From positions 186,001 to 250,000 of the forward strand of contig NZ_QCYG01000005.1 of NCBI RefSeq assembly GCF_003072065.1: a stretch of DNA of 64,000 bases, read 5' to 3'. This document shows, piece by piece, positions 34,224 through 47,234 of the stretch. Below the pieces are notes generated by a model. That model searched no databases, was not told where the DNA came from, and saw only the letters and a program-made list of their open reading frames with translations. How positions within the stretch are numbered: position 1 is the first letter of the stretch; each line of letters starts with the position of its first letter. The translations under genes were made by a program, and so were the position numbers. The DNA is from Thalassorhabdomicrobium marinisediminis (GTDB taxonomy: Bacteria; Pseudomonadota; Alphaproteobacteria; Rhodobacterales; Rhodobacteraceae).

Positions 34224-34267
34224 AAAGGGCCGGAGGCGCATGATCCTGTTTGCGTTTTCGGCCCTTT
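34224..34267 (+). promoter_or_regulatory. Hairpin enclosing the kdtA ribosome-binding site and start codon
   Basis: A perfect 9-bp stem, AAAGGGCCG (34224-34232) with CGGCCCTTT (34259-34267), encloses a 26-nt loop. The GGAGG site (34232-34236) and ATG (34240-34242) lie in the loop or at its edge. This could limit translation initiation of kdtA. An alternative is a weak terminator for gcrA, but there is no T-run. Confidence 0.45.
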
Positions 34268-35553
34268 ATCCTTTGCTCTGGGTGGTGCTGACGACGCTGG
34301 TGCTCGCCTATCTGTGGCACCGGAGCCGCCGCGATCCGCTGTATTTCAAGCATCTGGGTGAGCGGTTCGGCCGCTATGACGCCCTGCCCCAACGTCCGGT
34401 CTGGATCCATGCGGTCAGTCTGGGCGAGACGCGTTCGGCGGTGCCTTTGGCGCGGGATCTGCTGGCGGCGGGCGAGCGGGTCGTTTTCACCCATTTCACC
34501 CCGGCGGGCCGACGTGAGGCTCAGGCCGTCTTCGGTGCGGAGATTGCCGCGGGTCAGGTGGCGAGCGTTTGGGTGCCGCTCGACATGGGCTGGACCTTCG
34601 CGCGGTTCTTTCGCGCCTGTCGCCCGAAGATCGGCCTGACCATGGAGATCGAGATCTGGCCGGCGATGATCCTTGCAGCGAAACGTCATGGCGTGCCGTT
34701 CTATCTGTGCAACGCGCAATATCCCGTACCGTCGCTGGCGCGCGACAGTCGCGGGCTGCGACTGCGACAAAGGATCATGGCGCAGGTGGCGGGGGCTTTC
34801 GTGAAATCCGACCTGCAGGCAGAACGGTTCGCAGGGATCGGGCTGGGCAACATCCATGTCACCGGTGAGCTGCGCTTCGATCAACCGATCCCCCCGGCCC
34901 TGCTCAAGGCCGCCGAGGACGCGCGCGCCGCCCTGCCGCCGCGTCCGGTGATCACCATCGCCAGCGCGGTCGAGGGGGAGGATGCGCTCTACATCGACAC
35001 GATTCGCGCGCTGCTAGACGCGCCCGTGCCGCCACTGGTCATCTATGTCCCCCGCGCGCCCGAGCGATTCGACGCGGTGGCGCAGATGTTGCAGGCGGCG
35101 GGTTTGACCATCGCGCGGCGCAGCGTGATTTTTGATGCGGCGCTTCGGATGCAAAGCCCCTGGCCCAAGGGGGCGGATGTGCTGTTGGGCGACAGCATGG
35201 GCGAGATGTATTTCTATCTTTCGCTGGCACAACGCGTCGTGGTCGGCGGGGGCTTCCACCCCAAGGGCGCACACAATGTGATCGAACCCCTTGCGCTGGG
35301 CAAACCCGTTGTCACCGGCCCGGTCACCCACACCATCGAATTCCCCTTTCGAGAGGCCGAGGCCGCCGGGGTGGCGCTCTCCGTGGCCGATGGTATGGCG
35401 CTGATCAATGCTCTGGGCGGCCCGAGTTGGACCAGCGCAGAGCGCGCGCAGGCCTTTATGGCTGAACATCGTGGCGCCAGTGCGCGCACGGCGGCGGCGA
35501 TCCTTGGTATCATTAACGGGGGCGACGCGGCCCCACGTCGCGGTGCGGGTTAG
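34240..35553 (+). CDS. kdtA: 3-deoxy-D-manno-octulosonic acid transferase family (GT30), first copy
   Basis: 437 residues. An N-terminal membrane anchor (LFAFSALYPLLWVVLTTLVL) is followed by WIHAVSLGET with the conserved GT30 catalytic Glu, TMEIEIWPAMI, and the CMP-sugar site GGGFHPKGAHNVIEPLALGKP. GT30 enzymes transfer Kdo from CMP-Kdo to lipid A precursors at the inner membrane. Its sequence differs in style from the second GT30 gene at 42745, so the two are not recent duplicates, and I cannot tell from the window which one is the essential lipid A Kdo transferase. It overlaps the convergent receiver gene by 4 nt. Confidence 0.85.
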   Translation: MILFAFSALYPLLWVVLTTLVLAYLWHRSRRDPLYFKHLGERFGRYDALPQRPVWIHAVSLGETRSAVPLARDLLAAGERVVFTHFTPAGRREAQAVFGAEIAAGQVASVWVPLDMGWTFARFFRACRPKIGLTMEIEIWPAMILAAKRHGVPFYLCNAQYPVPSLARDSRGLRLRQRIMAQVAGAFVKSDLQAERFAGIGLGNIHVTGELRFDQPIPPALLKAAEDARAALPPRPVITIASAVEGEDALYIDTIRALLDAPVPPLVIYVPRAPERFDAVAQMLQAAGLTIARRSVIFDAALRMQSPWPKGADVLLGDSMGEMYFYLSLAQRVVVGGGFHPKGAHNVIEPLALGKPVVTGPVTHTIEFPFREAEAAGVALSVADGMALINALGGPSWTSAERAQAFMAEHRGASARTAAAILGIINGGDAAPRRGAG

Positions 35554-37165: not shown

Positions 37166-38035
37166 ATGCGCACGTTGGAAACCGCCACCAGAACGGATTG
37201 GGTCATTGATCGTATCGTGCAGGGCTTCATCCGCTCTGCGCTGGCGCTGCCCTATGACAAACGGGTGCGGCTGTTCGGGCGACTGAGCCAGCACGGGCTG
37301 TCGCCGCTGACCGGCTATCGCAAGCGGGCCATCGAGCAGTTGCAGTTCATCTGGCCGGACATGGACCCGGCCGAGCGGAAGCGGATCGCCGACGGGGTGG
37401 GCAACAATTTCGGCCGCACCATGATCGAGAATTATTCCGGCGCGGATTTCGCCAAGCAAGTGTCGCAGGCCGAGGTCTATGGCGGCGGGCTTGAGGCCGT
37501 GGCCGAAGCCAAAGCACAGGGGCGTCCGGTGCTGTTCGTGACGGGCCATTTCGGCAATCATGAGGCCCCGCGCATGGCGCTGACCCAGCGCGGCTACACC
37601 ATCGGCGGGCTGTATCGGCCCATCGCCAACCCCTATTTCAACGACCATTACGTCAAGAACATGCAGGCCATGTCGGGGCCGGTGTTTCCGCAAGGGCGGC
37701 GCGGCACCTCGGGCTTTGTGCGCATGTTGAAGGGTGGCGGCATGGGCACCTTGCTGTTCGACGTGCGCGCCGCGAAGTTCCCGCGCATCCCCTTCATGGG
37801 CAAGCCCGCGCACACCGCCACTTCGGTCGCGGATATCGCGCTCAAGCTGGACACGCTCGTGGTACCCTATTTCGGCATCCGCCAGCCAGACGGGCTGTCG
37901 TTCCGCATCGCCATCGAGGAGCCCATCGCCCACAGCACACCCGCGCAGATGATGGGTGAAATCACCGCGCGGCTGGAGGCCCATGTCAACGCCCACCCCG
38001 AACAATGGTTCTGGGTCCACCGCCGCTGGAAATAG
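37166..38035 (+). CDS. lpxL: Lipid A biosynthesis (lauroyl) acyltransferase, LpxL/HtrB family
   Basis: 289 residues. The acyltransferase motif HX4(D/E) is seen as TGHFGNHEAPRMAL at about residue 127, followed by GGLYRPIANPYFNDHYVK and QGRRGTSGFVRMLKGGG, both typical of HtrB proteins. It adds a secondary acyl chain to lipid A at the inner membrane. No strong ribosome-binding site precedes the ATG. It is 50 bp upstream of neuB on the same strand, linking lipid A modification with the nonulosonate genes. The exact acyl specificity (LpxL or LpxM type) is not readable from sequence. Confidence 0.88.
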   Translation: MRTLETATRTDWVIDRIVQGFIRSALALPYDKRVRLFGRLSQHGLSPLTGYRKRAIEQLQFIWPDMDPAERKRIADGVGNNFGRTMIENYSGADFAKQVSQAEVYGGGLEAVAEAKAQGRPVLFVTGHFGNHEAPRMALTQRGYTIGGLYRPIANPYFNDHYVKNMQAMSGPVFPQGRRGTSGFVRMLKGGGMGTLLFDVRAAKFPRIPFMGKPAHTATSVADIALKLDTLVVPYFGIRQPDGLSFRIAIEEPIAHSTPAQMMGEITARLEAHVNAHPEQWFWVHRRWK

Positions 38036-38085
38036 CGCCGCCGCTGGTGCATCCTTACGCTGAACCCCTGACCGGAGAGACCCCC

Positions 38086-39129
38086 ATGAAAATCGCCCAT
38101 CGAGAGATCGGCCCGGAACATCCGCCCCTTGTCATCGCCGAGATCGGCATCAACCACGGCGGCGATCTGGCGGTCGCAAAGGAAATGGCACGGCTGGCGG
38201 CCCTGTCGGGCTGCGAGATGATCAAGCACCAGACGCATATCGTCGAGGACGAGATGACCGAGGAGGCGAAACAGATCTTCCCGCCCAACGCCGATGTCTC
38301 GATCTGGGAGGTGATGGAGGCCTGTGCGCTTAGCCGCGAGGATGAGGCCGCGCTGAAGGCCTATGTCGAAGAGCTGGGGATGATCTTCATCTCGACCCCG
38401 TTTTCCCGCGCGGCCTGCGATTTTCTGGAAACGCTGGACGTGCCCGCCTACAAGATCGGCTCGGGCGAGGCGGACAACCTGCCGCTGATCCGCCACGTGG
38501 CCAGCAAGGGCAAACCGGTGATCATGTCCACGGGGATGCAAACCATCGACTCCGTGCGCGCCAGCGTGCAGATCCTTGAGGACAGCGGCGTGGAGTATGC
38601 GCTGCTGGAATGCACGAACCTCTACCCCTCCCCGCCCGAGATCGTGTCGCTGCAGGGGGTCACGGACCTGAAAGCGGCCTTCCCCAAGGCGGTCGTGGGC
38701 TTTTCGGACCATTCCATCGGGCCGGAGATGGCGCTGGCGTCGGTGGCGCTGGGGGCCTGCATCCTTGAGCGGCACTACACCGACACGCGGTATCGGCAGG
38801 GGCCGGATATCATCTGCTCCATGGACCCCGCCGAGCTGCGCCACCTGATCGACCGCAGCCGCGAGATCCATACCGCCCTGCACAACCCCAAGCAGCGCAC
38901 CGCCCCGGAAGAGGACGTCTATCGCTTCGCCCGCGCCAGCGTCGTGGCCGACGCGGACCTGCCCGCGGGCCACGTCATCACCGAAGCCGACATCTGGGCG
39001 CGACGTCCCGGATCGGGACCCATTGCGGGGTACGATTTCGACAAGGTACTGGGAAAGACACTGAAGGTGGCGGTGACGCGGAACCGGCAGTTGGACTGGG
39101 GTGATTTTGAGGAGGTGCCAGCATTCTAG
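38086..39129 (+). CDS. neuB: Nonulosonic acid synthase (NeuB family, legionaminate-synthase-like)
   Basis: 347 residues from the ATG at 38086 (GGAGAG upstream). It condenses a 6-carbon N-acyl hexosamine with phosphoenolpyruvate to a nine-carbon sugar. The N-terminal barrel contains AEIGINHGGD, MIKHQTHIVEDEMTEEAK, KIGSGEADN and MSTGMQ. The C-terminal 60 residues are the SAF/antifreeze-like domain (ASVVADADLPAGHVITEADI). KHQTHIVEDEM is the form I recall in the Campylobacter legionaminate synthase (PtmC/LegI) rather than the KFQT of sialate synthases. This supports a legionaminate-type product, but the specificity is inference. Confidence 0.9.
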   Translation: MKIAHREIGPEHPPLVIAEIGINHGGDLAVAKEMARLAALSGCEMIKHQTHIVEDEMTEEAKQIFPPNADVSIWEVMEACALSREDEAALKAYVEELGMIFISTPFSRAACDFLETLDVPAYKIGSGEADNLPLIRHVASKGKPVIMSTGMQTIDSVRASVQILEDSGVEYALLECTNLYPSPPEIVSLQGVTDLKAAFPKAVVGFSDHSIGPEMALASVALGACILERHYTDTRYRQGPDIICSMDPAELRHLIDRSREIHTALHNPKQRTAPEEDVYRFARASVVADADLPAGHVITEADIWARRPGSGPIAGYDFDKVLGKTLKVAVTRNRQLDWGDFEEVPAF

Positions 39130-39166
39130 GCACTATTCAACTCGCGACGTGCTTGCGTAGATATAA

Positions 39167-39943
39167 TTAACGGCTGTATCGCTTCCAATAAGTCGTGAGC
39201 CACTTCGGTGGTTTGCGTCCCGAACGCGGCGGACGTGCCCATGGCTGGATGGGTTCGACCACGGCACGAGGCCGGGGGAAGCCGTGGAAGGCAACCAGTC
39301 GCGTGGAAGGCGCAGGATCGCGCGGAGGCAAAAACAGATCAACGAGGTAGGGTCGGCGCAGGTGGTATTTGAAACTCTGCACCCATTCGACCGGATAGAA
39401 TGAAAGGTCCTTCGCCATCTGGCCAACAAACTGTTGTTCGAGCGTGATGGTCGAGGTGTAGTGTTCTTTGTTGCGCTGGAATTCCTCAAAGATACCGATG
39501 TGGAGCTCTGGCCGGTAGGTGATCGCGGCGGTGGCGGCCTGTGGCTCGATGCCTTCGTCCATTTGCCGCCACCGGTCCCCACAGCTGAGCATGCGCAGGG
39601 TCTGGCCGGGATCCTCGAAAAAGCCGTCCAGCGGGCCGGTGACAACCATGTCAATGTCGAGAAACAGGAAAATGTCGGCGAGGCCTACGAGATCGGGGTG
39701 AAACAGGCTGATCTTCGGCCAAACACCCCGGCCCGGGGTATCGGCGTAGAAATCGAACGCGGGGATCGGGTGAACCTCAATATCGGGGTCAAGCCCTTCG
39801 CCGTCATCTGTCAAGCAAATGAAACGGACCGGCTGAGATAGATGATCGAGCGCGGCCCGTTTCAGAACGTTGAGGTCTTGCGGGTCGAACTCCCTTCCCC
39901 ATTTGATCGACAGGATGGCCCTTTCAGGCGTCGTTTGCGTCAT
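39167..39943 (-). CDS. Glycosyltransferase with DxD motif
   Basis: 258 residues from the ATG at 39943, whose ATGA overlaps the stop of the preceding GT2 gene. LADIFLFLDIDMVVTGPLDG carries a DxD metal motif in the position used by GT-A fold retaining transferases such as GT8. Basic C-terminal residues suggest peripheral membrane association. It is translated with the GT2 gene; both face neuB convergently. The donor and acceptor are unknown, but the context indicates LPS core or another surface glycan. Confidence 0.75.
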   Translation of the reverse strand: MTQTTPERAILSIKWGREFDPQDLNVLKRAALDHLSQPVRFICLTDDGEGLDPDIEVHPIPAFDFYADTPGRGVWPKISLFHPDLVGLADIFLFLDIDMVVTGPLDGFFEDPGQTLRMLSCGDRWRQMDEGIEPQAATAAITYRPELHIGIFEEFQRNKEHYTSTITLEQQFVGQMAKDLSFYPVEWVQSFKYHLRRPYLVDLFLPPRDPAPSTRLVAFHGFPRPRAVVEPIQPWARPPRSGRKPPKWLTTYWKRYSR

Positions 39944-40860
39944 TGAGAGGCCCCTTTCTTGCGGGTCAAGCGCCGCAGTACCAACTGGAGACCGTGATAG
40001 GTCTGCCATTTCGCGATATCGGTCCGTGACAAACGGTGTTTGACCGGCTCGGGTAGATCGAAAGCTGCGCCGCCCTTGGCCCGCAATTCAAGCGCGCGAC
40101 GGATGCAGAAACGCTGCAGCGCGGCCCCGTCGGATGTTTGGAAAAAATCGTCGTGGTAGATCAGGATCAGGTCGAAACATTCGGCGCGGCTCAGCGCCTT
40201 CGCGCTCTTGGTTATGTTGATCGCCTGAGCCTGTGCCTGCCTGTCGATGACTGCATCGCCCGCGTCGACGACGACGCCTTGGCCGGAGAACCGAACGCCC
40301 CGCGCCGGACTACGGGCAAGGTTGATAGCAAACTCGGTATCCTGATTGGTGGTGAGCGCTGGTTTGAGGCGGCCGATCCTATTGAAAACATCTTTGCGAA
40401 CCCAGACGCCAAGGCTGAGAGGAAACAGGCTGCTGGTATCTGGCGGATCAGGCAGGGGATCGAACGCATTTCGCCCGTCGGCCTTGTCCGGACGGGCGCA
40501 ACAGCCATAATCCGCCGCCTCCGCAGTGGACCAATGGTTGCGCAGGCGATCAAGGTAGCCGGGTGCGAATGCGTCGTCATCGTCCAGAAAGACGATCATG
40601 TCATTGGAAGCTGCTGCAACACCGGTGTTACGAGCGGCAGCGGAGCGTTGAGGCGTCGCGTGTCGCAGGACTTTGACGTTGGACGCACCTGCGCCAAGGC
40701 CTGAATTCAAACTGTCTTCGATCGGGGAAGTGCTGCCATCGTCAACGACGATAACCTCGTCGCCATCGTGAAGTTGTGTCAGAGCGGTCTGCACCGCGTG
40801 GCGCACCATCAGTGGACGATCCTTGGATGGGATGACCACGGACAAGGCAAGATGGTTCAT
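39940..40860 (-). CDS. Glycosyltransferase family 2
   Basis: 306 residues. The GT2 N-terminus is clear: LSVVIPSKDRPLMVRHAVQT, VIVVDDGSTSP and MIVFLDDDDAFAPGYLDRL with the DXD metal site. It is the first gene of a two-gene minus-strand unit with the DxD transferase. The 123-bp divergent gap to the YrbL-like gene should hold both promoters. Confidence 0.88.
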   Translation of the reverse strand: MNHLALSVVIPSKDRPLMVRHAVQTALTQLHDGDEVIVVDDGSTSPIEDSLNSGLGAGASNVKVLRHATPQRSAAARNTGVAAASNDMIVFLDDDDAFAPGYLDRLRNHWSTAEAADYGCCARPDKADGRNAFDPLPDPPDTSSLFPLSLGVWVRKDVFNRIGRLKPALTTNQDTEFAINLARSPARGVRFSGQGVVVDAGDAVIDRQAQAQAINITKSAKALSRAECFDLILIYHDDFFQTSDGAALQRFCIRRALELRAKGGAAFDLPEPVKHRLSRTDIAKWQTYHGLQLVLRRLTRKKGASQ

Positions 40861-40983
40861 ACGCGTTCACTCCGGGTCCATGCGCCAAAAAGATTGAGCC
40901 TTGGTTTGTTCTCCAATATCAGGGGGGAAGGCCTGTTGCCACCCTTGAAGAGCGCCCCCGCGAGGTGGAGCGTAAGGAACCCG

Positions 40984-41640
40984 ATGCTAGATCGCCCCTC
41001 CCTGCCTTTGACGGATAATCTTCTACTTGCCCGGGGCGGCGGACGTTTGATCTATGCCCATCCGGTGCAGAAGGGGGTAATCATCAAGATCCACAGGACC
41101 TCTGCGCCGAGACCCTTTGCGGCGCTGCGCAACTTGTTCCGCGGGAATAAACGGCGGTTCGGTACGATTCTAAACTCAGCGGTCGAGATCGAAGAGATCG
41201 CAGCCAGTGTCGGGCGCACCGGACAGGTGCCCGCCTGTTGCGCGCAGTTTCTGGGGTTCATTCAGACCGATCAGGGCGCGGGGGCAATGTTCGAAGCCCT
41301 GCGCGGGGCCGACGGCGCGCTGGCGCCGCACCTGAAGGCCCATGCCACCGCTCATGGCTACGAGCCCGAAATTGAAGCCGCCATTGTCCGGCTCTGGGAC
41401 GCGGTGGAGGCGGCGGGGCTGTCCGTGTCGGATCGGGCATTGGTCAATGTGGTCGTAACTGGAACCCGCGACGCAGGCTATGTGCTGACCATCGTGGACG
41501 GGCTGGGCGACCGGACGTTGATCCCGATCCAGCGCATGTCGCGCACACTCTATGCCCGCAAATGCCGGCGCCTGCGCGCCGAGATGCTTGCCGCCTACCG
41601 CGCGCTGACCCTTCCCCCGACTTCGAAAGACAGCCCATGA
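40984..41640 (+). CDS. YrbL-like (PhoP network) kinase-fold protein
   Basis: 218 residues from the ATG at 40984 (GTAAGGA upstream); the open frame continues upstream antisense to the GT2 gene. LLARGGGRLIYAHPVQKGVIIKIHR resembles the ATP-binding lobe start of YrbL-PhoP_reg proteins, with a Lys in IIKIHR and a possible partner Glu in EIEEIA. YrbL proteins are kinase-like with no assigned substrate. Its stop overlaps the neuC ATG (ATGA), so it is translationally coupled to nonulosonate synthesis. A sugar, lipid A or protein kinase role is possible but speculative. Confidence 0.7.
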   Translation: MLDRPSLPLTDNLLLARGGGRLIYAHPVQKGVIIKIHRTSAPRPFAALRNLFRGNKRRFGTILNSAVEIEEIAASVGRTGQVPACCAQFLGFIQTDQGAGAMFEALRGADGALAPHLKAHATAHGYEPEIEAAIVRLWDAVEAAGLSVSDRALVNVVVTGTRDAGYVLTIVDGLGDRTLIPIQRMSRTLYARKCRRLRAEMLAAYRALTLPPTSKDSP

Positions 41641-42755
41641 AACGCTCCCTCCTTTTCGTCACCGGCACCCGTGCGGACTTCGGCAAGCTTGAACCCTTGG
41701 CCGTGGCGGCGCGGGATGCGGGGCATGCGGTGTCGTTCTGGGTGACGGGGATGCACATGCTCGACCGCTACGGGCTGACCCGCAAAGAGGTGGCGCGGGT
41801 GCCGGGGGTGACGGTGCATGAATACCTCAACCAGCGGCCGGGTGATCCGCAAGACCATGTGCTGGCCAAGACGGTCACGGGATTTTCCGACTTCATCGCC
41901 GAGCACCGGCCCGATCTGGTGGTGATCCACGGCGACCGGATCGAAGCGTTGGCCTGCGCGCTGGTCACCGCCACGAACTACGTGCGCTCGGCCCATATCG
42001 AAGGGGGCGAAGTCTCGGGCACCATTGACGAGATTTTCAGGCACTGCAATTCCAAGCTCGCCAGCCACCATTTCGTCAGCTCGCAAGAGGCGCGGCGGCG
42101 GGTGATGGCCATGGGTGAGCCGCATGAGACGATCCATGTGATCGGCTCGCCCGAGCTGGATTTCCACTCGGCCCCCTCGGGCGTGACGCTGGACGAGGTG
42201 CGCGACCGCTACGAGATTCCCTGGGCCGATTACGGCATCGTCGCCTTCCATCCGGTCACCTCGGAAGCCGCGACCATGGGGCAACAGGCGCGCGATTTGT
42301 TCTCGGCACTTGAGGTGTCGGGGCGACCCTTCGTGGTGATCGCGCCGAACAACGACCCCGGCTCGGAAGAGATTTTCGGGGTGCTGGGCGACCTGCCCAA
42401 GGACCGGTTTCGCATCCTGCCGTCGATGCGGTTCGCGCATTTCTCAGAACTGATGAAGAACGCCGCCTGCATGATCGGCAATTCCAGCGCCGGCGTGCGC
42501 GAGGCACCGTTTCTGGGCACGCCCTCGCTCGATGTGGGCACGCGGCAGACCAACCGCGCGGCGGCCCCGTCGCTGCGCGGAGTCAAGGCCTCGGACGCCG
42601 CGGCCATCGCGGATTTTCTGGCCGAGGAATGGGGCAAACGCTATCCGCGCCACGACGCCTTCGGACAGGGCAATGCGGCGACGCGCTTTGCCGAGATCGT
42701 CAGCGATCCGGCCTTCTGGACCGGCGATCTGCAAAAACGGTTCCATGACCAATAG
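41637..42755 (+). CDS. neuC: Hydrolysing UDP/GDP-HexNAc 2-epimerase (NeuC family)
   Basis: 372 residues from the ATG at 41637. GTRADFGKLEPLA at the N-terminus, HGDRIEALACALV, AHIEGGEVSGTIDEIFRH and the C-terminal IGNSSAGVREAPFLGTPSLD and VGTRQ segment define the hydrolysing 2-epimerase fold used by NeuC/LegG. It releases the nucleotide and yields ManNAc or a diacetyl-bacillosamine-derived hexose, the substrate for NeuB. ATGA overlap with the YrbL-like gene and an 11-nt overlap with the following GT30 gene make a tight three-gene unit. Confidence 0.92.
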   Translation: MKRSLLFVTGTRADFGKLEPLAVAARDAGHAVSFWVTGMHMLDRYGLTRKEVARVPGVTVHEYLNQRPGDPQDHVLAKTVTGFSDFIAEHRPDLVVIHGDRIEALACALVTATNYVRSAHIEGGEVSGTIDEIFRHCNSKLASHHFVSSQEARRRVMAMGEPHETIHVIGSPELDFHSAPSGVTLDEVRDRYEIPWADYGIVAFHPVTSEAATMGQQARDLFSALEVSGRPFVVIAPNNDPGSEEIFGVLGDLPKDRFRILPSMRFAHFSELMKNAACMIGNSSAGVREAPFLGTPSLDVGTRQTNRAAAPSLRGVKASDAAAIADFLAEEWGKRYPRHDAFGQGNAATRFAEIVSDPAFWTGDLQKRFHDQ

Positions 42756-44031
42756 GCCCGCCCGGCCCTGGATCGGCCCGATGCTGCGCATGGTTCTGGG
42801 CGCGGGCCATGCCTTGCAACCCTTGGCTGCTCCGATGCTGCGACGGCGGCTGGACCGGGGCAAGGAAGACCCCGAGCGCTGGCGTGAGAAGCTGGGCGAG
42901 GCGACGGAAGTGCGGCCCGACGGGGTGCTGGTCTGGCTGCACGGCGTCGGCGTGGGTGAGGTGATGGCCCTGCGCGGATTGATCGAGAGGATGGCCGACG
43001 CGCGGCCAGACCTGCGGTTTCTGGTGACGTCAACGGCGCGGTCCTCGGGCGAGGTGATTGCCCGCAACTTGCCGCCCCGGGCGCAGCACCAATATCTGCC
43101 CTTGGACCTGCCGCGCCCTGTGGCGCGTTTTCTGGACCATTGGCGACCCGATCTGGCAGTCTGGTCCGATCAGGAGGTCTGGCCCCGGCTTGCGGTCGAA
43201 CTCGCCCGGCGCGGCATCCCGCAGGCCTATGTGGCGGCGCGGATCACCGAGGCCTCGGCCCGCGCGCGGGCGCGGTTCGGGCGAGCCTACGGCGACCTGT
43301 ATGGGCTGATGGACCGGCTTCACGCGCAGGACGCAGGCACGGCGGCGCATCTGCGCGCGCTGGTCGGGGACCGCGCGCAGGTCGAGGTCTCGGGCTCGTT
43401 GAAGGCGGCGGCCGCGCCCCTGGCCGTGGCGCCCGGGGCGCAAACGGCGTTCGAGGCGGCCCTGGCGGGGCGCAGGTGCTGGGTGCTCGCCTCGTCCCAC
43501 CCCGCAGATGAACCCTTGGCCCTTGCGGCGCATCAGGCGGTGCGCGCGGCGGATCCCGACGCGCTTCTGGTGATCGCGCCGCGCGACGTGACGCGGGGGG
43601 GCGCAATCGTGCAGGCGGCGCAGACGGCGGGCTTTGGCACCAGCTTGCGGAGCGCGGGCGCCCTGCTCGACGCGGGCACGGCGGTCTATGTGGCCGATAC
43701 CTTCGGCGAGCTGGGCCTGTGGTATCGCAGCTGCCCCGTGGCGCTGATCGGAGGCACCTTCGACGCCGTCGAAGGCCACAACCCGTGGGAGGCCGTCAGC
43801 CTTGGCGCGGCGGTTCTACACGGCCCGCACACCGCGAATTTCGCAATGGATTACAAGATGTTGCAAGAGGGTGGCGGTGCGCGTCTGGTGCAATCGTCCG
43901 ACCAGATTGCAGCGGCGGTGCTGTCACCTGACACGGCCGACATGCGCGCCGCCGCGACAGCGGTTCAGGCGGACATGGCGCGGGGGGTCGCGGCGATCAC
44001 GCAGGATCTGTTGGCGCTGCTGGACCGCTAG
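42745..44031 (+). CDS. Second GT30 (Kdo transferase family) glycosyltransferase
   Basis: 428 residues from the ATG at 42745, inside the neuC 3' end. GT30 landmarks: VWLHGVGVGEVMAL with the conserved catalytic Glu, WRPDLAVWSDQEVWPRL, VSGSLKAA, LASSHPADE and the CMP-sugar site IGGTFDAVEGHNPWEAVSLG plus HGPHTANF. It has a hydrophobic N-terminal stretch but no long anchor. Family knowledge: GT30 enzymes use CMP-Kdo. Inference: behind neuC, with neuA and neuB in the same locus, it may use CMP-nonulosonate, or it may add Kdo next to the nonulosonate. It converges with the oxidoreductase gene (4-nt overlap). Confidence 0.85.
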   Translation: MTNRPARPWIGPMLRMVLGAGHALQPLAAPMLRRRLDRGKEDPERWREKLGEATEVRPDGVLVWLHGVGVGEVMALRGLIERMADARPDLRFLVTSTARSSGEVIARNLPPRAQHQYLPLDLPRPVARFLDHWRPDLAVWSDQEVWPRLAVELARRGIPQAYVAARITEASARARARFGRAYGDLYGLMDRLHAQDAGTAAHLRALVGDRAQVEVSGSLKAAAAPLAVAPGAQTAFEAALAGRRCWVLASSHPADEPLALAAHQAVRAADPDALLVIAPRDVTRGGAIVQAAQTAGFGTSLRSAGALLDAGTAVYVADTFGELGLWYRSCPVALIGGTFDAVEGHNPWEAVSLGAAVLHGPHTANFAMDYKMLQEGGGARLVQSSDQIAAAVLSPDTADMRAAATAVQADMARGVAAITQDLLALLDR

Positions 44032-44960
44032 AAAGCCATCTTGGCGGTGCCCGTGAAGCGGCGTTTGGTCCAGGCGTCCGCGATCAGGTCCGCTGAGGCG
44101 CGCATGTCCGACAGGCGCGGCGCGAGGGGGTGCAGCTTCGCGTCGGGGTCGTCGATCAGCCTCAGCCAGTCGCGGGTAATGGCGCGGAACATGTCGTTGC
44201 GCTCATGGGGAAAGCTTTGCGTGTCGCTGCCTGAGGGGCCGTCCACCGTCAGCGTCGCCGCCAGCAAATCAAGGCGGCGCAGGGCGTCAGTGCCGGCAAG
44301 GTCCGAACGGCGCTGGCTCACCGGCGCGAGGTAGTCCATCGCGACGGTGCCCGCCCGCCCCTGCGGATCGGCGAGCGCGATGCGGCTGGCGAAATCGACA
44401 CCGTTGAAATCCGCGTGGCCCACGCTGCTGACCGCCTGCACAGTGAGGCCGGGAAACAGCGCGAGGGCAAGGTCGAGTTCGTGGCAGAGGTCAAGCAGCA
44501 CTCCGCCACCGTCCGGGCGGGCGGCGTAGCTGTCGGGGAAGGACCAGTTCTGCCGCCATTGGCGCACGTCGTGGCCAATCTCGAAGGTGAAGCCGTAAAC
44601 CTCCGAGAGGTCCTGCGCGGCCAATGCCTGCACAACCGGGTGATAGCGCGCCATGAAGCCCAGCATGGAGCGCGCTGCCAGATCGCCCGCGCGGTTGTAG
44701 ATCTCGGCCACGCCCTGAGCGGTCCAGTGCAGGGGTTTTTCCACGTAGAAGGGCCAGCCTTTGGCGGCGCAAAGATCGATCAGCTCAAGCCGCACCTGCG
44801 TCGCCGTGGCGATGACCATACCCTTGACGTCACTTCGTTTTTCCAGCGCCGCCCGGTCGAAGGAGCGCCACGGGATCAGCACCGCAGGCTCACCCAGCGC
44901 AGCAAGGTTGTCCGCGTGGCGCCGCCCGATGGAGCCCGCGCCGACGACTGCGATCACCAT
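44028..44960 (-). CDS. Gfo/Idh/MocA family oxidoreductase
   Basis: 310 residues. N-terminal NAD(P) fold VIAVVGAGSIGRRHADNL, then YVEKPLH, the conserved EKP motif of the family, and GGGVLLDLCHELDLAL with the His in the active-site helix. It should oxidise or reduce a sugar or nucleotide sugar. It is the last gene of the minus-strand unit phosphatase-neuA-SDR-oxidoreductase and overlaps the SDR gene by 7 nt. I infer a role in preparing or tailoring the nonulosonate precursor. Confidence 0.88.
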   Translation of the reverse strand: MVIAVVGAGSIGRRHADNLAALGEPAVLIPWRSFDRAALEKRSDVKGMVIATATQVRLELIDLCAAKGWPFYVEKPLHWTAQGVAEIYNRAGDLAARSMLGFMARYHPVVQALAAQDLSEVYGFTFEIGHDVRQWRQNWSFPDSYAARPDGGGVLLDLCHELDLALALFPGLTVQAVSSVGHADFNGVDFASRIALADPQGRAGTVAMDYLAPVSQRRSDLAGTDALRRLDLLAATLTVDGPSGSDTQSFPHERNDMFRAITRDWLRLIDDPDAKLHPLAPRLSDMRASADLIADAWTKRRFTGTAKMAF

Positions 44961-45742
44961 GCGGCAAACCCGCCGTCGACGTTGAAAATCTCACCGGTCA
45001 TATAGCCGGATTGTTTGGAGGCGAGGAACAACATGGCATCGGCGATCTCGTCAGGTTCGCACATGCGCCCGGCCATGATGAGCTCACCCACGCGGCGTTG
45101 AAACTCTTCCGAATGGCCGTTGTAAACCGCCCCCGGCGCGATGGTGTTCACCGTCGCCTGCCGCTTCGCCCAATAGCCCGCAAGCCAGACCGTTAGCCCG
45201 TGAATCCCCGCTTTCGTCACACCGTAGGCGGAGAAATTCTTGAACGGCATCCCCTCATAAATCTGGTGATGCGCACCGTTGAGCGCATACATCGACGCCA
45301 CGTTGATCAGGGAGCTAGGGCGTTTGCCGACGATGTCGCGGTCCATCTGGCGGGCGACCAGAAAGGCCCCGGTGAGGTTTGTGCGCATGGTCCTTTCCCA
45401 ATCGTCGAGCGTCGTGTCGGCGAAGTCGGGAAAGGAGGCGCCCGCGCCCATCAGCATCTCGCCGGTGATGGCGGCGTTGTTGAGCACGACATTGGGTTGC
45501 CAGCCGTCGGCCTCAACGGTTTTGAAGATCTCGACCACCTGTTCTTCGGACGAGACATCGAGGGGGTAGAGCGCGAAATCCGGATTGTCGCCGTGCGCCT
45601 CTTGCAGAGCGTCGAACCGATGGCCCGGCAGATCGGTGGCCACGACCTTGGCCCCCTCGGCCAGCATCCGCCGCACATAGGTGCTGCCCAGAACCCCGCC
45701 GGAGCCTGTGATAAAGACGGTTCTGCCTTCAAGTTGCGCCAT
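44954..45742 (-). CDS. Short-chain dehydrogenase/reductase (PtmA-like)
   Basis: 262 residues. The cofactor motif is TGSGGVLG (residues 11-18), with NNAA, an active-site Ser in LINVASMYA and FSAYGVTKAG with the YxxxK pair. The SAYGVTKAGIHGLTVWLAGYWA region resembles PtmA of the Campylobacter flagellin-glycosylation locus, which also neighbours a CMP-nonulosonate synthetase (PtmB). It overlaps neuA by 14 nt and the oxidoreductase by 7 nt. The substrate is not known. Confidence 0.88.
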   Translation of the reverse strand: MAQLEGRTVFITGSGGVLGSTYVRRMLAEGAKVVATDLPGHRFDALQEAHGDNPDFALYPLDVSSEEQVVEIFKTVEADGWQPNVVLNNAAITGEMLMGAGASFPDFADTTLDDWERTMRTNLTGAFLVARQMDRDIVGKRPSSLINVASMYALNGAHHQIYEGMPFKNFSAYGVTKAGIHGLTVWLAGYWAKRQATVNTIAPGAVYNGHSEEFQRRVGELIMAGRMCEPDEIADAMLFLASKQSGYMTGEIFNVDGGFAAW

Positions 45743-46430
45743 TCAGTCGATCCTTCATCAGAAATTGCACGATTTTCCAGTCCAGCGGGTCGTCCACGTC
45801 CATGCACCGCTCGGGCGGCATGACGAAGGGGATAACGCGCCCCTCATAGATGCTGGACGCGTCGCGCAGGTAGCTGGGCCGCAGAACATAGGTCGAGGCC
45901 GCGTGTTCATAAACCGCCGGCGCGTTCTGCCGCGCCCAGACCCCGCCCGGAAGCGGTTTCGAGACGTGCAGGGCGCCGGTCTCGTCCGCCTCGACCATGT
46001 TGAAATAGGGGTTTTTTCGGGCGTGACAGCAGGACATCACCATGTCCGGCGCTTTGGTCTGAAAAAGGTCGATCGCGCCGTCGAGGTCTTCCATCAGCCG
46101 CAGGGGCGAGGTGCAGTCGAGATCGACAAAGGCAGAGGCCGTGCCCGCCAACGCCTCGGCCGCGGCCAGCGAGTGTTGCCAGACACCCCACTTCGGCGCG
46201 TCGTCCGTGGCCAGATGGGCGGGGCGCATTCCGATGTCGAGCGCACCCTTGGCGACCGCGTGGTCGTACATCTCGGGGCTGTCGGTGCTGACCACCACGG
46301 CGTCGATACGGGGGCTTTCGAGAAGCTGGTCCAGTGACCAGTCGATCAGCGGTTTGCCGCAGAGCATGCGGAAGTTCTTGCCCGGCACGCCCTTCGAGCC
46401 GCGGCGCGCGCCGATATGTCCGATTATCAA
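45729..46430 (-). CDS. neuA: CMP-nonulosonic acid synthetase (NeuA/PtmB family)
   Basis: 233 residues if started at the TTG at 46430, whose TTGA overlaps the stop of the upstream phosphatase gene and which has GGAAGG 8 nt before it; GTG at 46439 and TTG at 46460 are alternatives. The nucleotidyltransferase signature ARRGSKGVPGKNFRML, VDLDCTSPLRLMEDLDGAI and ARKNPYFNMVE are those of CMP-sialate/legionaminate synthetases. It activates the nine-carbon acid with CTP, providing the donor for a surface glycosyltransferase. Together with neuB and neuC it completes the common core of nonulosonate synthesis. Confidence 0.9.
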   Translation of the reverse strand: MIIGHIGARRGSKGVPGKNFRMLCGKPLIDWSLDQLLESPRIDAVVVSTDSPEMYDHAVAKGALDIGMRPAHLATDDAPKWGVWQHSLAAAEALAGTASAFVDLDCTSPLRLMEDLDGAIDLFQTKAPDMVMSCCHARKNPYFNMVEADETGALHVSKPLPGGVWARQNAPAVYEHAASTYVLRPSYLRDASSIYEGRVIPFVMPPERCMDVDDPLDWKIVQFLMKDRLNGAT

Positions 46431-47089
46431 TCTGCCCACCTTCCGGCACCCGCGCGCCAATCATTGAAATCTGCTTTGATCATCTTGGGGTTATAGCCCG
46501 TCTCGAGCCAGTTGCGGAACCCCTGCCCGCCGGGTTCGACGTCACGCAGATAAACCCGGAAAATATGGTCCAGCACGCCCGAACGCGTGCGGTTGAAATG
46601 AAAATGCCGCGCGGCCAGTTGCCCGGCGGCGTCCGCCACGGGCACCCCTTCGACAAGGATCAGGAACAGCGCGGCGATGAAGCCCGTGCGGTCGGCGCCG
46701 GATTTGCAGTGGAACACGAAGGGGCGCGGCACCTGCGCCATGGCGTCGATGGTCTGCAGGATCGTCTCCGCCTCGACAAGCCGCCGTGCGGTCACCCCGC
46801 GCAGGTTGACGAAATTCAACCCCAGCGCGGCGCAGGCCTCGGCCTCGAGCAGGGTATAGGCGATGGGTTTGTCGGCGCGCAGGGTCACGACCGAGGTGAT
46901 GCCCATGGCCTTGTAGCGGGCCAGCCTGCGCGGCCCCGGCTGGTTCGAGCGCCAGACGCCGGGGGCGATCTGGTGCAGGTTCCACCAGAACAGCCGCAGC
47001 AGGTGGTGATCGACGAACAGGAACTGGACCCACGCGGCCAAGCGACCCCGAAAGGTGGACAGATCAAAGGCGGGGGGCTTGCGGCTCAT
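46427..47089 (-). CDS. Tyrosine/dual-specificity protein phosphatase-like protein
   Basis: 220 residues from the ATG at 47089. The cysteine-phosphatase loop HCKSGADRTG (CX5R) is intact and preceded by PFVFHCK; the N-terminal WRSNQPGPRRLARYKAMGIT is typical of DSP-like enzymes with an upstream substrate-entry segment. It may act on a phosphorylated sugar, lipid A phosphate or phosphotyrosine. It is the first gene of the operon with neuA (TTGA overlap), SDR and oxidoreductase, so its job is probably tied to the glycan. Confidence 0.85.
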   Translation of the reverse strand: MSRKPPAFDLSTFRGRLAAWVQFLFVDHHLLRLFWWNLHQIAPGVWRSNQPGPRRLARYKAMGITSVVTLRADKPIAYTLLEAEACAALGLNFVNLRGVTARRLVEAETILQTIDAMAQVPRPFVFHCKSGADRTGFIAALFLILVEGVPVADAAGQLAARHFHFNRTRSGVLDHIFRVYLRDVEPGGQGFRNWLETGYNPKMIKADFNDWRAGAGRWAD

Positions 47090-47234
47090 GGTGTGCTGAT
47101 AGCCGCCCCGCCGCACCGGCACAACAACGCGCGAGCCCCCCGCGCGGACCGGATGCGCCCTGCGGGTCGGAACGGCGCGTCACTATCATGCAAACGGGGG
47201 TTTTCGCAGCCTTGATCGGAGGATATAGGACCCC

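What the first reader, a model, noticed from the sequence alone, without database searches (positions are those of the whole stretch)
37166..47089. A lipopolysaccharide nonulosonate locus with its own GT30 (Kdo-transferase family) enzyme
Seen: lpxL-like, neuB, two glycosyltransferases, YrbL-like, neuC, GT30, Gfo/Idh/MocA, SDR, neuA and a phosphatase lie together with 4-14 nt overlaps inside three units. Known: NeuC, NeuB and NeuA make a CMP-activated nine-carbon acid; GT30 enzymes use CMP-Kdo, a chemically similar 8-carbon acid; neuraminic acid has been reported in Rhodobacter LPS. Inference: the GT30 protein at 42745, overlapping neuC by 11 nt and separate in sequence style from the GT30 at 34240, transfers CMP-nonulosonate (or a Kdo next to it) to lipid A or core. 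A GT30 member dedicated to nonulosonic acid would be a new donor specificity for the family.
Basis: partly seen in the sequence, partly recalled or inferred. Interest (0 to 1): 0.75.

Follow-up and report, generated by a model that had tools for sequence, protein, structure and literature searches.

The report
Sugar-acid transferase beside sialic-acid genes
Next to genes that make a sialic-acid-like sugar, this bacterium carries two relatives of the enzyme that joins the sugar Kdo to lipopolysaccharide; comparison of many genomes suggests that one is an ordinary Kdo enzyme and that the other, not the one first suspected, attaches the sialic-acid-like sugar.

Summary
The locus is real: lpxL-like, neuB, a GT2, an unclassified gene, yrbL-like, neuC, a GT30, Gfo/Idh, SDR, neuA and a phosphatase-like gene. 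The genome has three GT30 matches: A (42745, behind neuC), B (34240) and C (another contig, beside lpxK). B is a separate, fully supported clade. In a 149-genome family sample all 19 B genomes have NeuB, against 16 of 130 others. B occurs beside neuB/C/A genes and, as a sister subclade, in pseB/C/F/I operons. B keeps the catalytic Glu but has changed Arg154, His241 and the Asn354-Phe355 pair that A keeps. Chemistry fits: Loktanella (now Yoonia) rosea carries Neu on an inner-core Kdo, R. capsulatus LPS has Neu5Ac, and two Yoonia species and R. capsulatus carry A, B, C and neu genes. I predict that B is a CMP-nonulosonate transferase, a donor not found for GT30 in the papers searched. Not shown biochemically; in some genomes B is the only intact GT30 seen.

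The parts
34240..35553 (+). GT30-B, predicted CMP-nonulosonate transferase (437 aa)
   Evidence: PF04413 148.9 bits; separate GT30 clade; 19 of 19 B genomes of the 149 have NeuB; AlphaFold model pLDDT 91.9, best PDB match WaaA 2xci
42745..44031 (+). GT30-A, WaaA-type Kdo transferase of the neu locus (428 aa)
   Evidence: PF04413 163.4 bits with the longer ORF; A rows keep R154, K208, H241, N354-F355 of canonical WaaA; S57 is G in 100 of 100 non-redundant A rows; overlaps neuC by 11 nt
41562..42755 (+). neuC, hydrolysing UDP-GlcNAc 2-epimerase (start perhaps 41637)
   Evidence: TIGR03568 338.2 bits over cut-off 235.9; best PDB match 4zht, UDP-GlcNAc 2-epimerase/ManNAc kinase, 166.9 bits
38005..39129 (+). 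neuB, nonulosonate synthase (start perhaps 38086)
   Evidence: PF03102 228.4 bits and SAF; best PDB match SiaC/NeuB 1xuu 368.3 bits, PseI 8h2c 126.9 bits
45729..46460 (-). neuA, CMP-nonulosonate synthetase (start uncertain)
   Evidence: CTP_transf_3; best PDB matches CMP-Neu5Ac synthetases 6ifd, 1eyr; TIGR03584 PseF 90.4 bits, under its cut-off but above KdsB-type models
44954..45742 (-). SDR oxidoreductase, frequent partner
   Evidence: PF13561 149 bits; homologue in 36 of 80 named B loci
44028..44960 (-). Gfo/Idh/MocA oxidoreductase, frequent partner
   Evidence: PF22725 30.6 bits; homologue in 35 of 80 named B loci
37166..38035 (+). LpxL/HtrB-like late acyltransferase
   Evidence: PF03279 141.6 bits; homologue in 11 of 80 named B loci
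39940..40860 (-). GT2 glycosyltransferase
   Evidence: PF00535 79.6 bits
39167..40009 (-). conserved protein of unknown family, possibly a glycosyltransferase (a guess)
   Evidence: no Pfam, NCBIfam or PDB hit; homologue in 20 of 80 named B loci
40768..41640 (+). YrbL-like protein (start uncertain)
   Evidence: PF10707 87.8 bits
46427..47122 (-). PTP/DSP-like phosphatase (start uncertain)
   Evidence: PF22785 34.2 and PF13350 33.9 bits

Best explanation
The locus makes a CMP-activated nonulosonate by the neuraminate route (NeuC, NeuB, NeuA; that the product is Neu5Ac or a derivative is inferred), and two GT30 enzymes build the LPS inner core. GT30-A (42745) is the WaaA-type enzyme that adds Kdo to the lipid A precursor. 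GT30-B (34240) belongs to a GT30 subfamily whose donor has shifted from CMP-Kdo to a CMP-nonulosonate; it adds the nine-carbon acid, most simply to a Kdo, as in the alpha-Neu-(2->8)-Kdo core of Loktanella (Yoonia) rosea. Shown here: gene content, clades, co-occurrence, residue changes. Inferred: donor, acceptor, order of addition.
For: B is one clade (SH-aLRT 100*) apart from all 28 other-family alphaproteobacterial GT30s and all Rhodobacteraceae WaaA rows put in the trees. 149 genomes: 19 of 19 B genomes have NeuB vs 16 of 130 without B (Fisher p 8e-15, which takes no account of kinship). 394 genomes: B and window-type NeuC together in 53, B only 15, NeuC only 5, neither 321. Of the 15 B-only genomes 13 have NeuB; the other two have a PseI-like (L141) or NeuA-like (L326) stretch beside B. 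Subclade Bp lies in pseB-pseC-pseF-pseI operons (PseC and PseF over cut-off, PseI 339.2 against 340.25), in 7 of 7 Bp loci of 9 kb or more. Seven CMP synthetases of the window and of B loci all match the PseF model better than KdsB models. Non-redundant rows: B keeps E60, R269, N335, E338 in 113 of 113, but R154 is Q in 103, K208 is R in 112, H241 is V or I in 101, and N354-F355 becomes T (98) and I (112); Bp has N for R154 in 8 of 9, V/I for H241 in 9 of 9, G and I/V for N354-F355 in 9 of 9. A keeps R154 100, K208 100, H241 99, N354 97, F355 100 of 100. kdsA is over cut-off in the own genome, and a kdsB-type gene is there at 148.6 bits (cut-off 155.2), so Kdo is probably still made. L. rosea core has Neu on Kdo (PMC3210612, passages); R. 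capsulatus LPS has Neu5Ac (PMC9631793, passages); R. capsulatus DSM 1710 has neuB/C/A (L321), the A-B pair (L180) and C (L309); Y. vestfoldensis and Y. maricola have A, B, C and NeuB; L. rosea is now Yoonia rosea.
Against: No biochemistry. A too is found only with NeuC (18 of 18) and has its own fixed change (S57 to G, 100 of 100), so A could be the adapted enzyme. In some B genomes no other intact GT30 was found: G120 (contig of Amylibacter kogurei), G297 and G284 have B and a degraded C; G444 and G459 have B and a weak match that I did not read; G394 and G309 have B alone. There B may have to transfer Kdo, unless another family does. Window-type NeuB and NeuC also occur without B: G017 and G350 have only an ordinary WaaA beside lpxK, so that nonulosonate is placed by something else there. 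One named genome with B (L156, Cypionkella MAG) shows no NeuB, nor does G435 (71% complete). In 15 of 92 B loci of 9 kb or more no nonulosonate gene lies within 10 kb. K208 is unchanged in Bp (8 of 9). The linkage in the R. capsulatus trisaccharide was not read.
Confidence: 0.6

Rival explanations
1. One reading: A (42745) is the nonulosonate transferase, and B adds a second Kdo or does the ordinary Kdo transfer.
For: A directly follows and overlaps neuC, is restricted to NeuC genomes (18 of 18 of 149), forms its own 100* clade and has S57 to G (100 of 100) and E244 to D (98 of 100). B keeps the HAxSxGE motif that A has changed.
Against: B stands with nonulosonate genes where no A was found: pse loci L134, L135, L137-L140, L142, neu locus L136, and genome G120, while A without B was seen only in G147 (73% complete) and in G021, which has a B piece at a contig end. 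A keeps R154, H241 and N354-F355 of WaaA, B does not. The 28 other alphaproteobacterial GT30s score much closer to A than to B; E. coli WaaA about equally.
Confidence: 0.15
2. B is a Kdo transferase (second or third Kdo, or the main WaaA in some lineages), needed because a nonulosonate core changes the acceptor; the nonulosonate itself is added by another enzyme (GT2, orf39167 or one elsewhere).
For: Characterised GT30 enzymes use CMP-Kdo (recalled); B is the only intact GT30 found in several genomes; kdsA is kept in 142 of 149 genomes; window-type NeuB/NeuC occur without B in G017 and G350.
Against: Does not explain why B stays with the synthase and CMP synthetase across two pathways (neu and pse) or why WaaA residues are changed in B. 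Homologues of the window's GT2 were seen in 2 of 80 named B loci and of orf39167 in 20 of 80; enzymes elsewhere in the genome were not searched for.
Confidence: 0.2
3. Co-occurrence is hitch-hiking: A and B are LPS enzymes that sit in a transferable surface-polysaccharide island without working on the nonulosonate.
For: Gene order varies, and in R. capsulatus the A-B pair and the neu genes are on different contigs.
Against: Where apart they still share the genome: 16 of 17 named genomes, chosen mostly for few or no neu genes near B, have NeuB.
Confidence: 0.05

Closest known systems
WaaA/KdtA, CAZy GT30 (E. coli b3633; Aquifex 2xci; Acinetobacter C-terminal domain 4bfc)
   Same: PF04413 domain; WaaA 2xci is the best PDB match of the B model; catalytic Glu conserved (its role is recalled)
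   Different: B has changed R154, H241 and N354-F355 and is tied to nonulosonate genes; A is the same kind as WaaA
Known sialyltransferase families (GT29, 38, 42, 52, 80) and the pseudaminyltransferase KpsS1, GT118 (passages and a reference of PMC12887879)
   Same: CMP-nonulosonate donors
   Different: other families; no GT30 member was named as such in what I saw
Loktanella (Yoonia) rosea core alpha-Neu-(2->8)[alpha-Kdo-(2->4)]-alpha-Kdo (PMC3210612, passages)
   Same: three ulosonic acids in the inner core of a relative; no transferase is named in the passages
   Different: the genome of that strain was not examined here
Lst, a gonococcal sialyltransferase reported to transfer Kdo (PMC8092323, title and start of abstract in a listing)
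   Same: the CMP-Kdo / CMP-sialate border can be crossed
   Different: other family (recalled) and the opposite direction

Membership tests
GT30 (B, 34240) | PF04413 N-terminal domain over the curated cut-off | tested here: met
   148.9 bits vs 23.9
GT30 (B, 34240) | WaaA-like GT-B fold | tested here: met
   Model pLDDT 91.9; Foldseek best match 2xci, E 1.9e-21
GT30 (B, 34240) | catalytic Glu (E. coli E60) | tested here: met
   113 of 113 B and 9 of 9 Bp non-redundant rows
WaaA Kdo transferase proper (B) | residues conserved in other WaaA: R154, H241, N354-F355 | tested here: not met
   B: R154 Q 103/113, H241 V/I 101/113, N354 T 98/113, F355 I 112/113; roles of these residues not tested
WaaA Kdo transferase proper (A) | the same residues | tested here: met
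   R154 100, H241 99, N354 97, F355 100 of 100; exceptions S57 to G and E244 to D
WaaA Kdo transferase proper (A) | clade nested in Rhodobacteraceae WaaA | tested here: inconclusive
   Nested in the best trees, but AU does not reject other placements
nonulosonate transferase (B) | transfer from a CMP-nonulosonate | not testable with these tools
   needs an assay
NeuC/NeuB/NeuA neuraminate pathway | epimerase, synthase and CMP synthetase closest to Neu-type enzymes | tested here: met
   NeuB is below its TIGR03569 cut-off (344.9 vs 399.65), and NeuA is under the PseF cut-off

The most novel reading that the evidence does not exclude
B and Bp are GT30 enzymes with nonulosonate donors, one subclade for neuraminate and one for pseudaminate; in lineages where B is the only intact GT30 it may place a nonulosonate on lipid A where Kdo normally sits.
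Probability: 0.52. Interest if true: 0.8.

Novelty: new variant of a known kind. Interest (0 to 1): 0.63.

Why it matters
If right, GT30, known to me as a Kdo-only family, has a branch that moves sialic-acid-like sugars, with two subclades for two sugars, and naming these genes after the family would mislead in many genera (B was found in 67 of 393 genera sampled). It would offer a transferase for the neuraminate-bearing core of Yoonia (Loktanella) rosea, give a natural experiment in CMP-Kdo versus CMP-nonulosonate selectivity, and supply a marker gene for nonulosonate-bearing LPS in this family.

Tried and rejected
Hypothesis that the nonulosonate replaces Kdo in all neu genomes: not supported, since kdsA matches occur in 142 of 149 genomes and kdsB-type matches in 142 of 149 (only 10 over the kdsB cut-off; some kdsB-type matches may be neuA-like genes), own genome included. 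Hypothesis that C is the ordinary WaaA of this genome because it sits at the lpxK site: set aside because C rows have lost most catalytic motifs, but not excluded. NCBIfam labels did not decide: A and B both hit Kdo-transferase models below cut-off, B better (349.7 of 524) than A (266.5 of 617). AU tests of A's place were inconclusive. The tree warns that the long B and E. coli branches meet; the set gave no long-branch warning but also used a quick search. My first reading of the C-terminal signature as GPHxxNF was too narrow: the His is variable in ordinary WaaA too, and only the Asn-Phe pair discriminates. Paper searches for a GT30 sialyl- or pseudaminyltransferase found none (only listings and the passages cited were seen; most subscription journals are missing). 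The second structure job was not used; no docking tool.
Full report
1. What is there. Pfam and NCBIfam confirm the gene content of 37166-47122 and the two GT30 genes. NeuB is closest to SiaC/NeuB of the polysialate pathway among solved structures (368.3 bits; PseI 126.9), NeuC to a hydrolysing UDP-GlcNAc 2-epimerase (4zht 166.9 bits; GDP/UDP-diNAc-bacillosamine epimerase 140.1), NeuA to CMP-Neu5Ac synthetases. No dehydratase or aminotransferase of the legionaminate or pseudaminate routes was among the locus genes scanned, so a neuraminate is the simplest product (inference; the rest of the genome was not searched for them). The protein at 39167-40009 has no family match.

2. Three GT30 matches. 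A PF04413 search of the window's own genome found A (window 42745), B (window 34240) and C (contig 11, 371 aa). C lies beside lpxK, DUF4170, an inositol-monophosphatase-like gene and PmbA, the same neighbourhood as the single WaaA of genome G094.

3. Trees. In a 105-row tree and a 100-row tree without C, A rows form one clade (100*) among Rhodobacteraceae WaaA, and B rows one clade (100*) outside all alphaproteobacterial WaaA rows. The 28 rows from other families were the best matches to B in a 115-genome class sample, not a random set. In one search B splits into Bp (99*) and B (98*). AU tests do not reject holding A and B together (p 0.093, log-likelihood 42.4 lower) or taking A out of the WaaA set (p 0.33, 12.3 lower). 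So A's nested position is the best tree, not a proof.

4. Co-occurrence. Sample of 149 genomes of the family: 19 have B at E <= 1e-60 (G021 has in addition a 104-aa piece at a contig end). All 19 have a PF03102 NeuB match; of the other 130, 16 do (Fisher p 8e-15, kinship not corrected for). Eighteen have A (my classification); all 18 have NeuC over the TIGR03568 cut-off (in G056 it is a distant type). B without A: G120, G079 and G022 (in G022 the contigs break there). A without B: G147 (73% complete) and G021 (piece only). Sample of 394 genomes: B in 68; window-type NeuC (identity 50% or more) in 58, more distant NeuC in 17; both 53, B only 15, NeuC only 5, neither 321. Of the 15 B-only genomes 13 have NeuB; G309 has a PseI-like stretch and G435 a NeuA-like gene beside B. 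Of the 5 NeuC-only genomes, G021 has the B piece, G147 is incomplete, G286 has a distant GT30 (29% to B) beside NeuB and NeuC, and G017 and G350 have only an ordinary WaaA beside lpxK. The last two show that this NeuB/NeuC type does not always go with B.

5. Gene neighbourhoods. Eighty named B loci from the collection of 84,980 species genomes (the best 80 of at least 588 kept, so biased to close relatives): A in 72, NeuC 63, NeuA 57, NeuB 53, SDR 36, Gfo 35, with flanks of at most 8 kb. For 17 of these genomes, chosen mostly because few or no neu genes lay near, NeuB is in the genome in 16; the exception is the Cypionkella MAG of L156. In loci of 9 kb or more, a nonulosonate gene lies within 10 kb of B in 77 of 92, of Bp in 7 of 7, of A in 65 of 77, of C in 0 of 18 (most A loci were found through B or NeuC, so the A figure is biased).

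6. The pse operons. In G382 (L139) the order is Polysacc_synt_2, DegT aminotransferase, cytidylyltransferase, NeuB-family synthase, GT30-Bp. The aminotransferase is PseC over cut-off, the cytidylyltransferase of the parallel locus L134 is PseF over cut-off, and the synthase scores 339.2 for PseI against a cut-off of 340.25 and 271.6 for NeuB. Relatives of pseB, pseC, pseF and pseI lie with Bp in L134, L135, L137, L138, L140 and L142. A second pathway with the same GT30 branch is the strongest argument that B's link is to the nonulosonate.

7. Residues (E. coli numbering; rows under 90% identical to each other: 28 other-family alpha, 14 WaaA beside lpxK, 29 WaaA elsewhere, 100 A, 113 B, 9 Bp). 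E60, R269 and E338 are kept in all of them, and N335 in 27/28, 14/14, 29/29, 97/100, 113/113 and 9/9. R154: 27/28, 14/14, 27/29, A 100/100; B has Q in 103 and Bp N in 8. H241: 28/28, 14/14, 24/29, A 99/100; B has V or I in 101, Bp in 9. N354: 24/28, 14/14, 21/29, A 97/100; B T in 98, Bp G in 9. F355: 22/28, 13/14, 25/29, A 100/100; B I in 112, Bp I or V in 9. K208 is R in 112 B rows but unchanged in 8 of 9 Bp. A has its own changes: S57 to G 100/100, E244 to D 98/100, and H270 mostly lost (D in 44), as in B. The roles of these residues were not tested; positions 241-355 lie in the half that corresponds to 4bfc, titled the CMP-Kdo binding domain.

8. Structure. AlphaFold2 of B: mean pLDDT 91.9; among solved structures WaaA of Aquifex (2xci) ranks first and the Acinetobacter domain 4bfc fifth.

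9. Chemistry. A review gives alpha-Neu-(2->8)[alpha-Kdo-(2->4)]-alpha-Kdo for the core of L. rosea (PMC3210612, passages); L. rosea is now Yoonia rosea. Another lists R. capsulatus among bacteria with Neu5Ac in LPS (PMC9631793, passages; the 1992 structural paper was seen only as a reference). R. capsulatus DSM 1710 has three PF04413 matches, the A-B pair (L180) and C (L309), and NeuB, NeuC, Gfo, SDR and NeuA together on another contig (L321). Y. vestfoldensis and Y. maricola each have three GT30 matches and NeuB. The match between chemistry and genes is by genus or species, not by the strains analysed.

10. What does not fit. In several B genomes no other intact GT30 was found: B and a degraded C in G120, G297 and G284 (L292, L298, L300); B and a weak match not read in G444 and G459; B alone in G394 and G309. 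G382 has only the N-terminal half of an unlinked WaaA. In the 149 sample 9 genomes have no GT30 match and others only weak ones, although kdsA matches occur in 142. So C-like proteins, B, or an unknown family attach Kdo there, or some of these bacteria lack Kdo in lipid A. This is why confidence stays near 0.6; I lowered it slightly on re-checking because of G017, G350 and the narrower motif.

11. Verdict. The finding is real and interesting, but the GT30 to watch is most likely 34240, not 42745.

Noticed in passing
G000 C11:348162-348641 (L004:6512-7627, -): GT30-like protein C beside lpxK: of 21 such loci read (own genome and 20 of 22 weak matches) all 21 have LpxK close by, yet most have lost the catalytic GT30 motifs; a retained pseudoenzyme or an enzyme with a new function.
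   Followed up: partly
149-genome family sample and G350: In 14 of 14 genomes with an intact WaaA beside lpxK it is the only PF04413 match; of 18 genomes with an intact WaaA elsewhere among L005-L034, 17 have two or more matches.
   Followed up: partly
149-genome family sample: Nine genomes without any PF04413 match and several with only weak ones, although kdsA is nearly universal: an unknown Kdo transferase or Kdo-poor lipid A.
   Followed up: no
window 39167-40009 (-): Conserved protein without family match, with homologues near neuC or WaaA-type GT30 genes in many loci; candidate glycosyltransferase family (a guess).
   Followed up: no
L208, L218: A-B-neu loci in MAGs labelled Granulosicoccaceae and Chromatiales: transfer to Gammaproteobacteria or mis-binned contigs.
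   Followed up: no
L055, L056, L144, L148, L150, L151, L326: B genes with another kind of CMP-sugar synthetase, about 30% identical to NeuA or PseF, perhaps for another nonulosonate.
   Followed up: partly
L228:1566: An extra, diverged GT30 near the neu locus of Thalassobius vesicularis, in the same unclassified group as L073 of G009.
   Followed up: no
L312 (G382): Only the N-terminal half of an unlinked WaaA-type gene is matched, while B is intact.
   Followed up: no
L313 (G286): A GT30 only 29% identical to B stands beside NeuB and NeuC: possibly a third, more distant nonulosonate-linked GT30.
   Followed up: no
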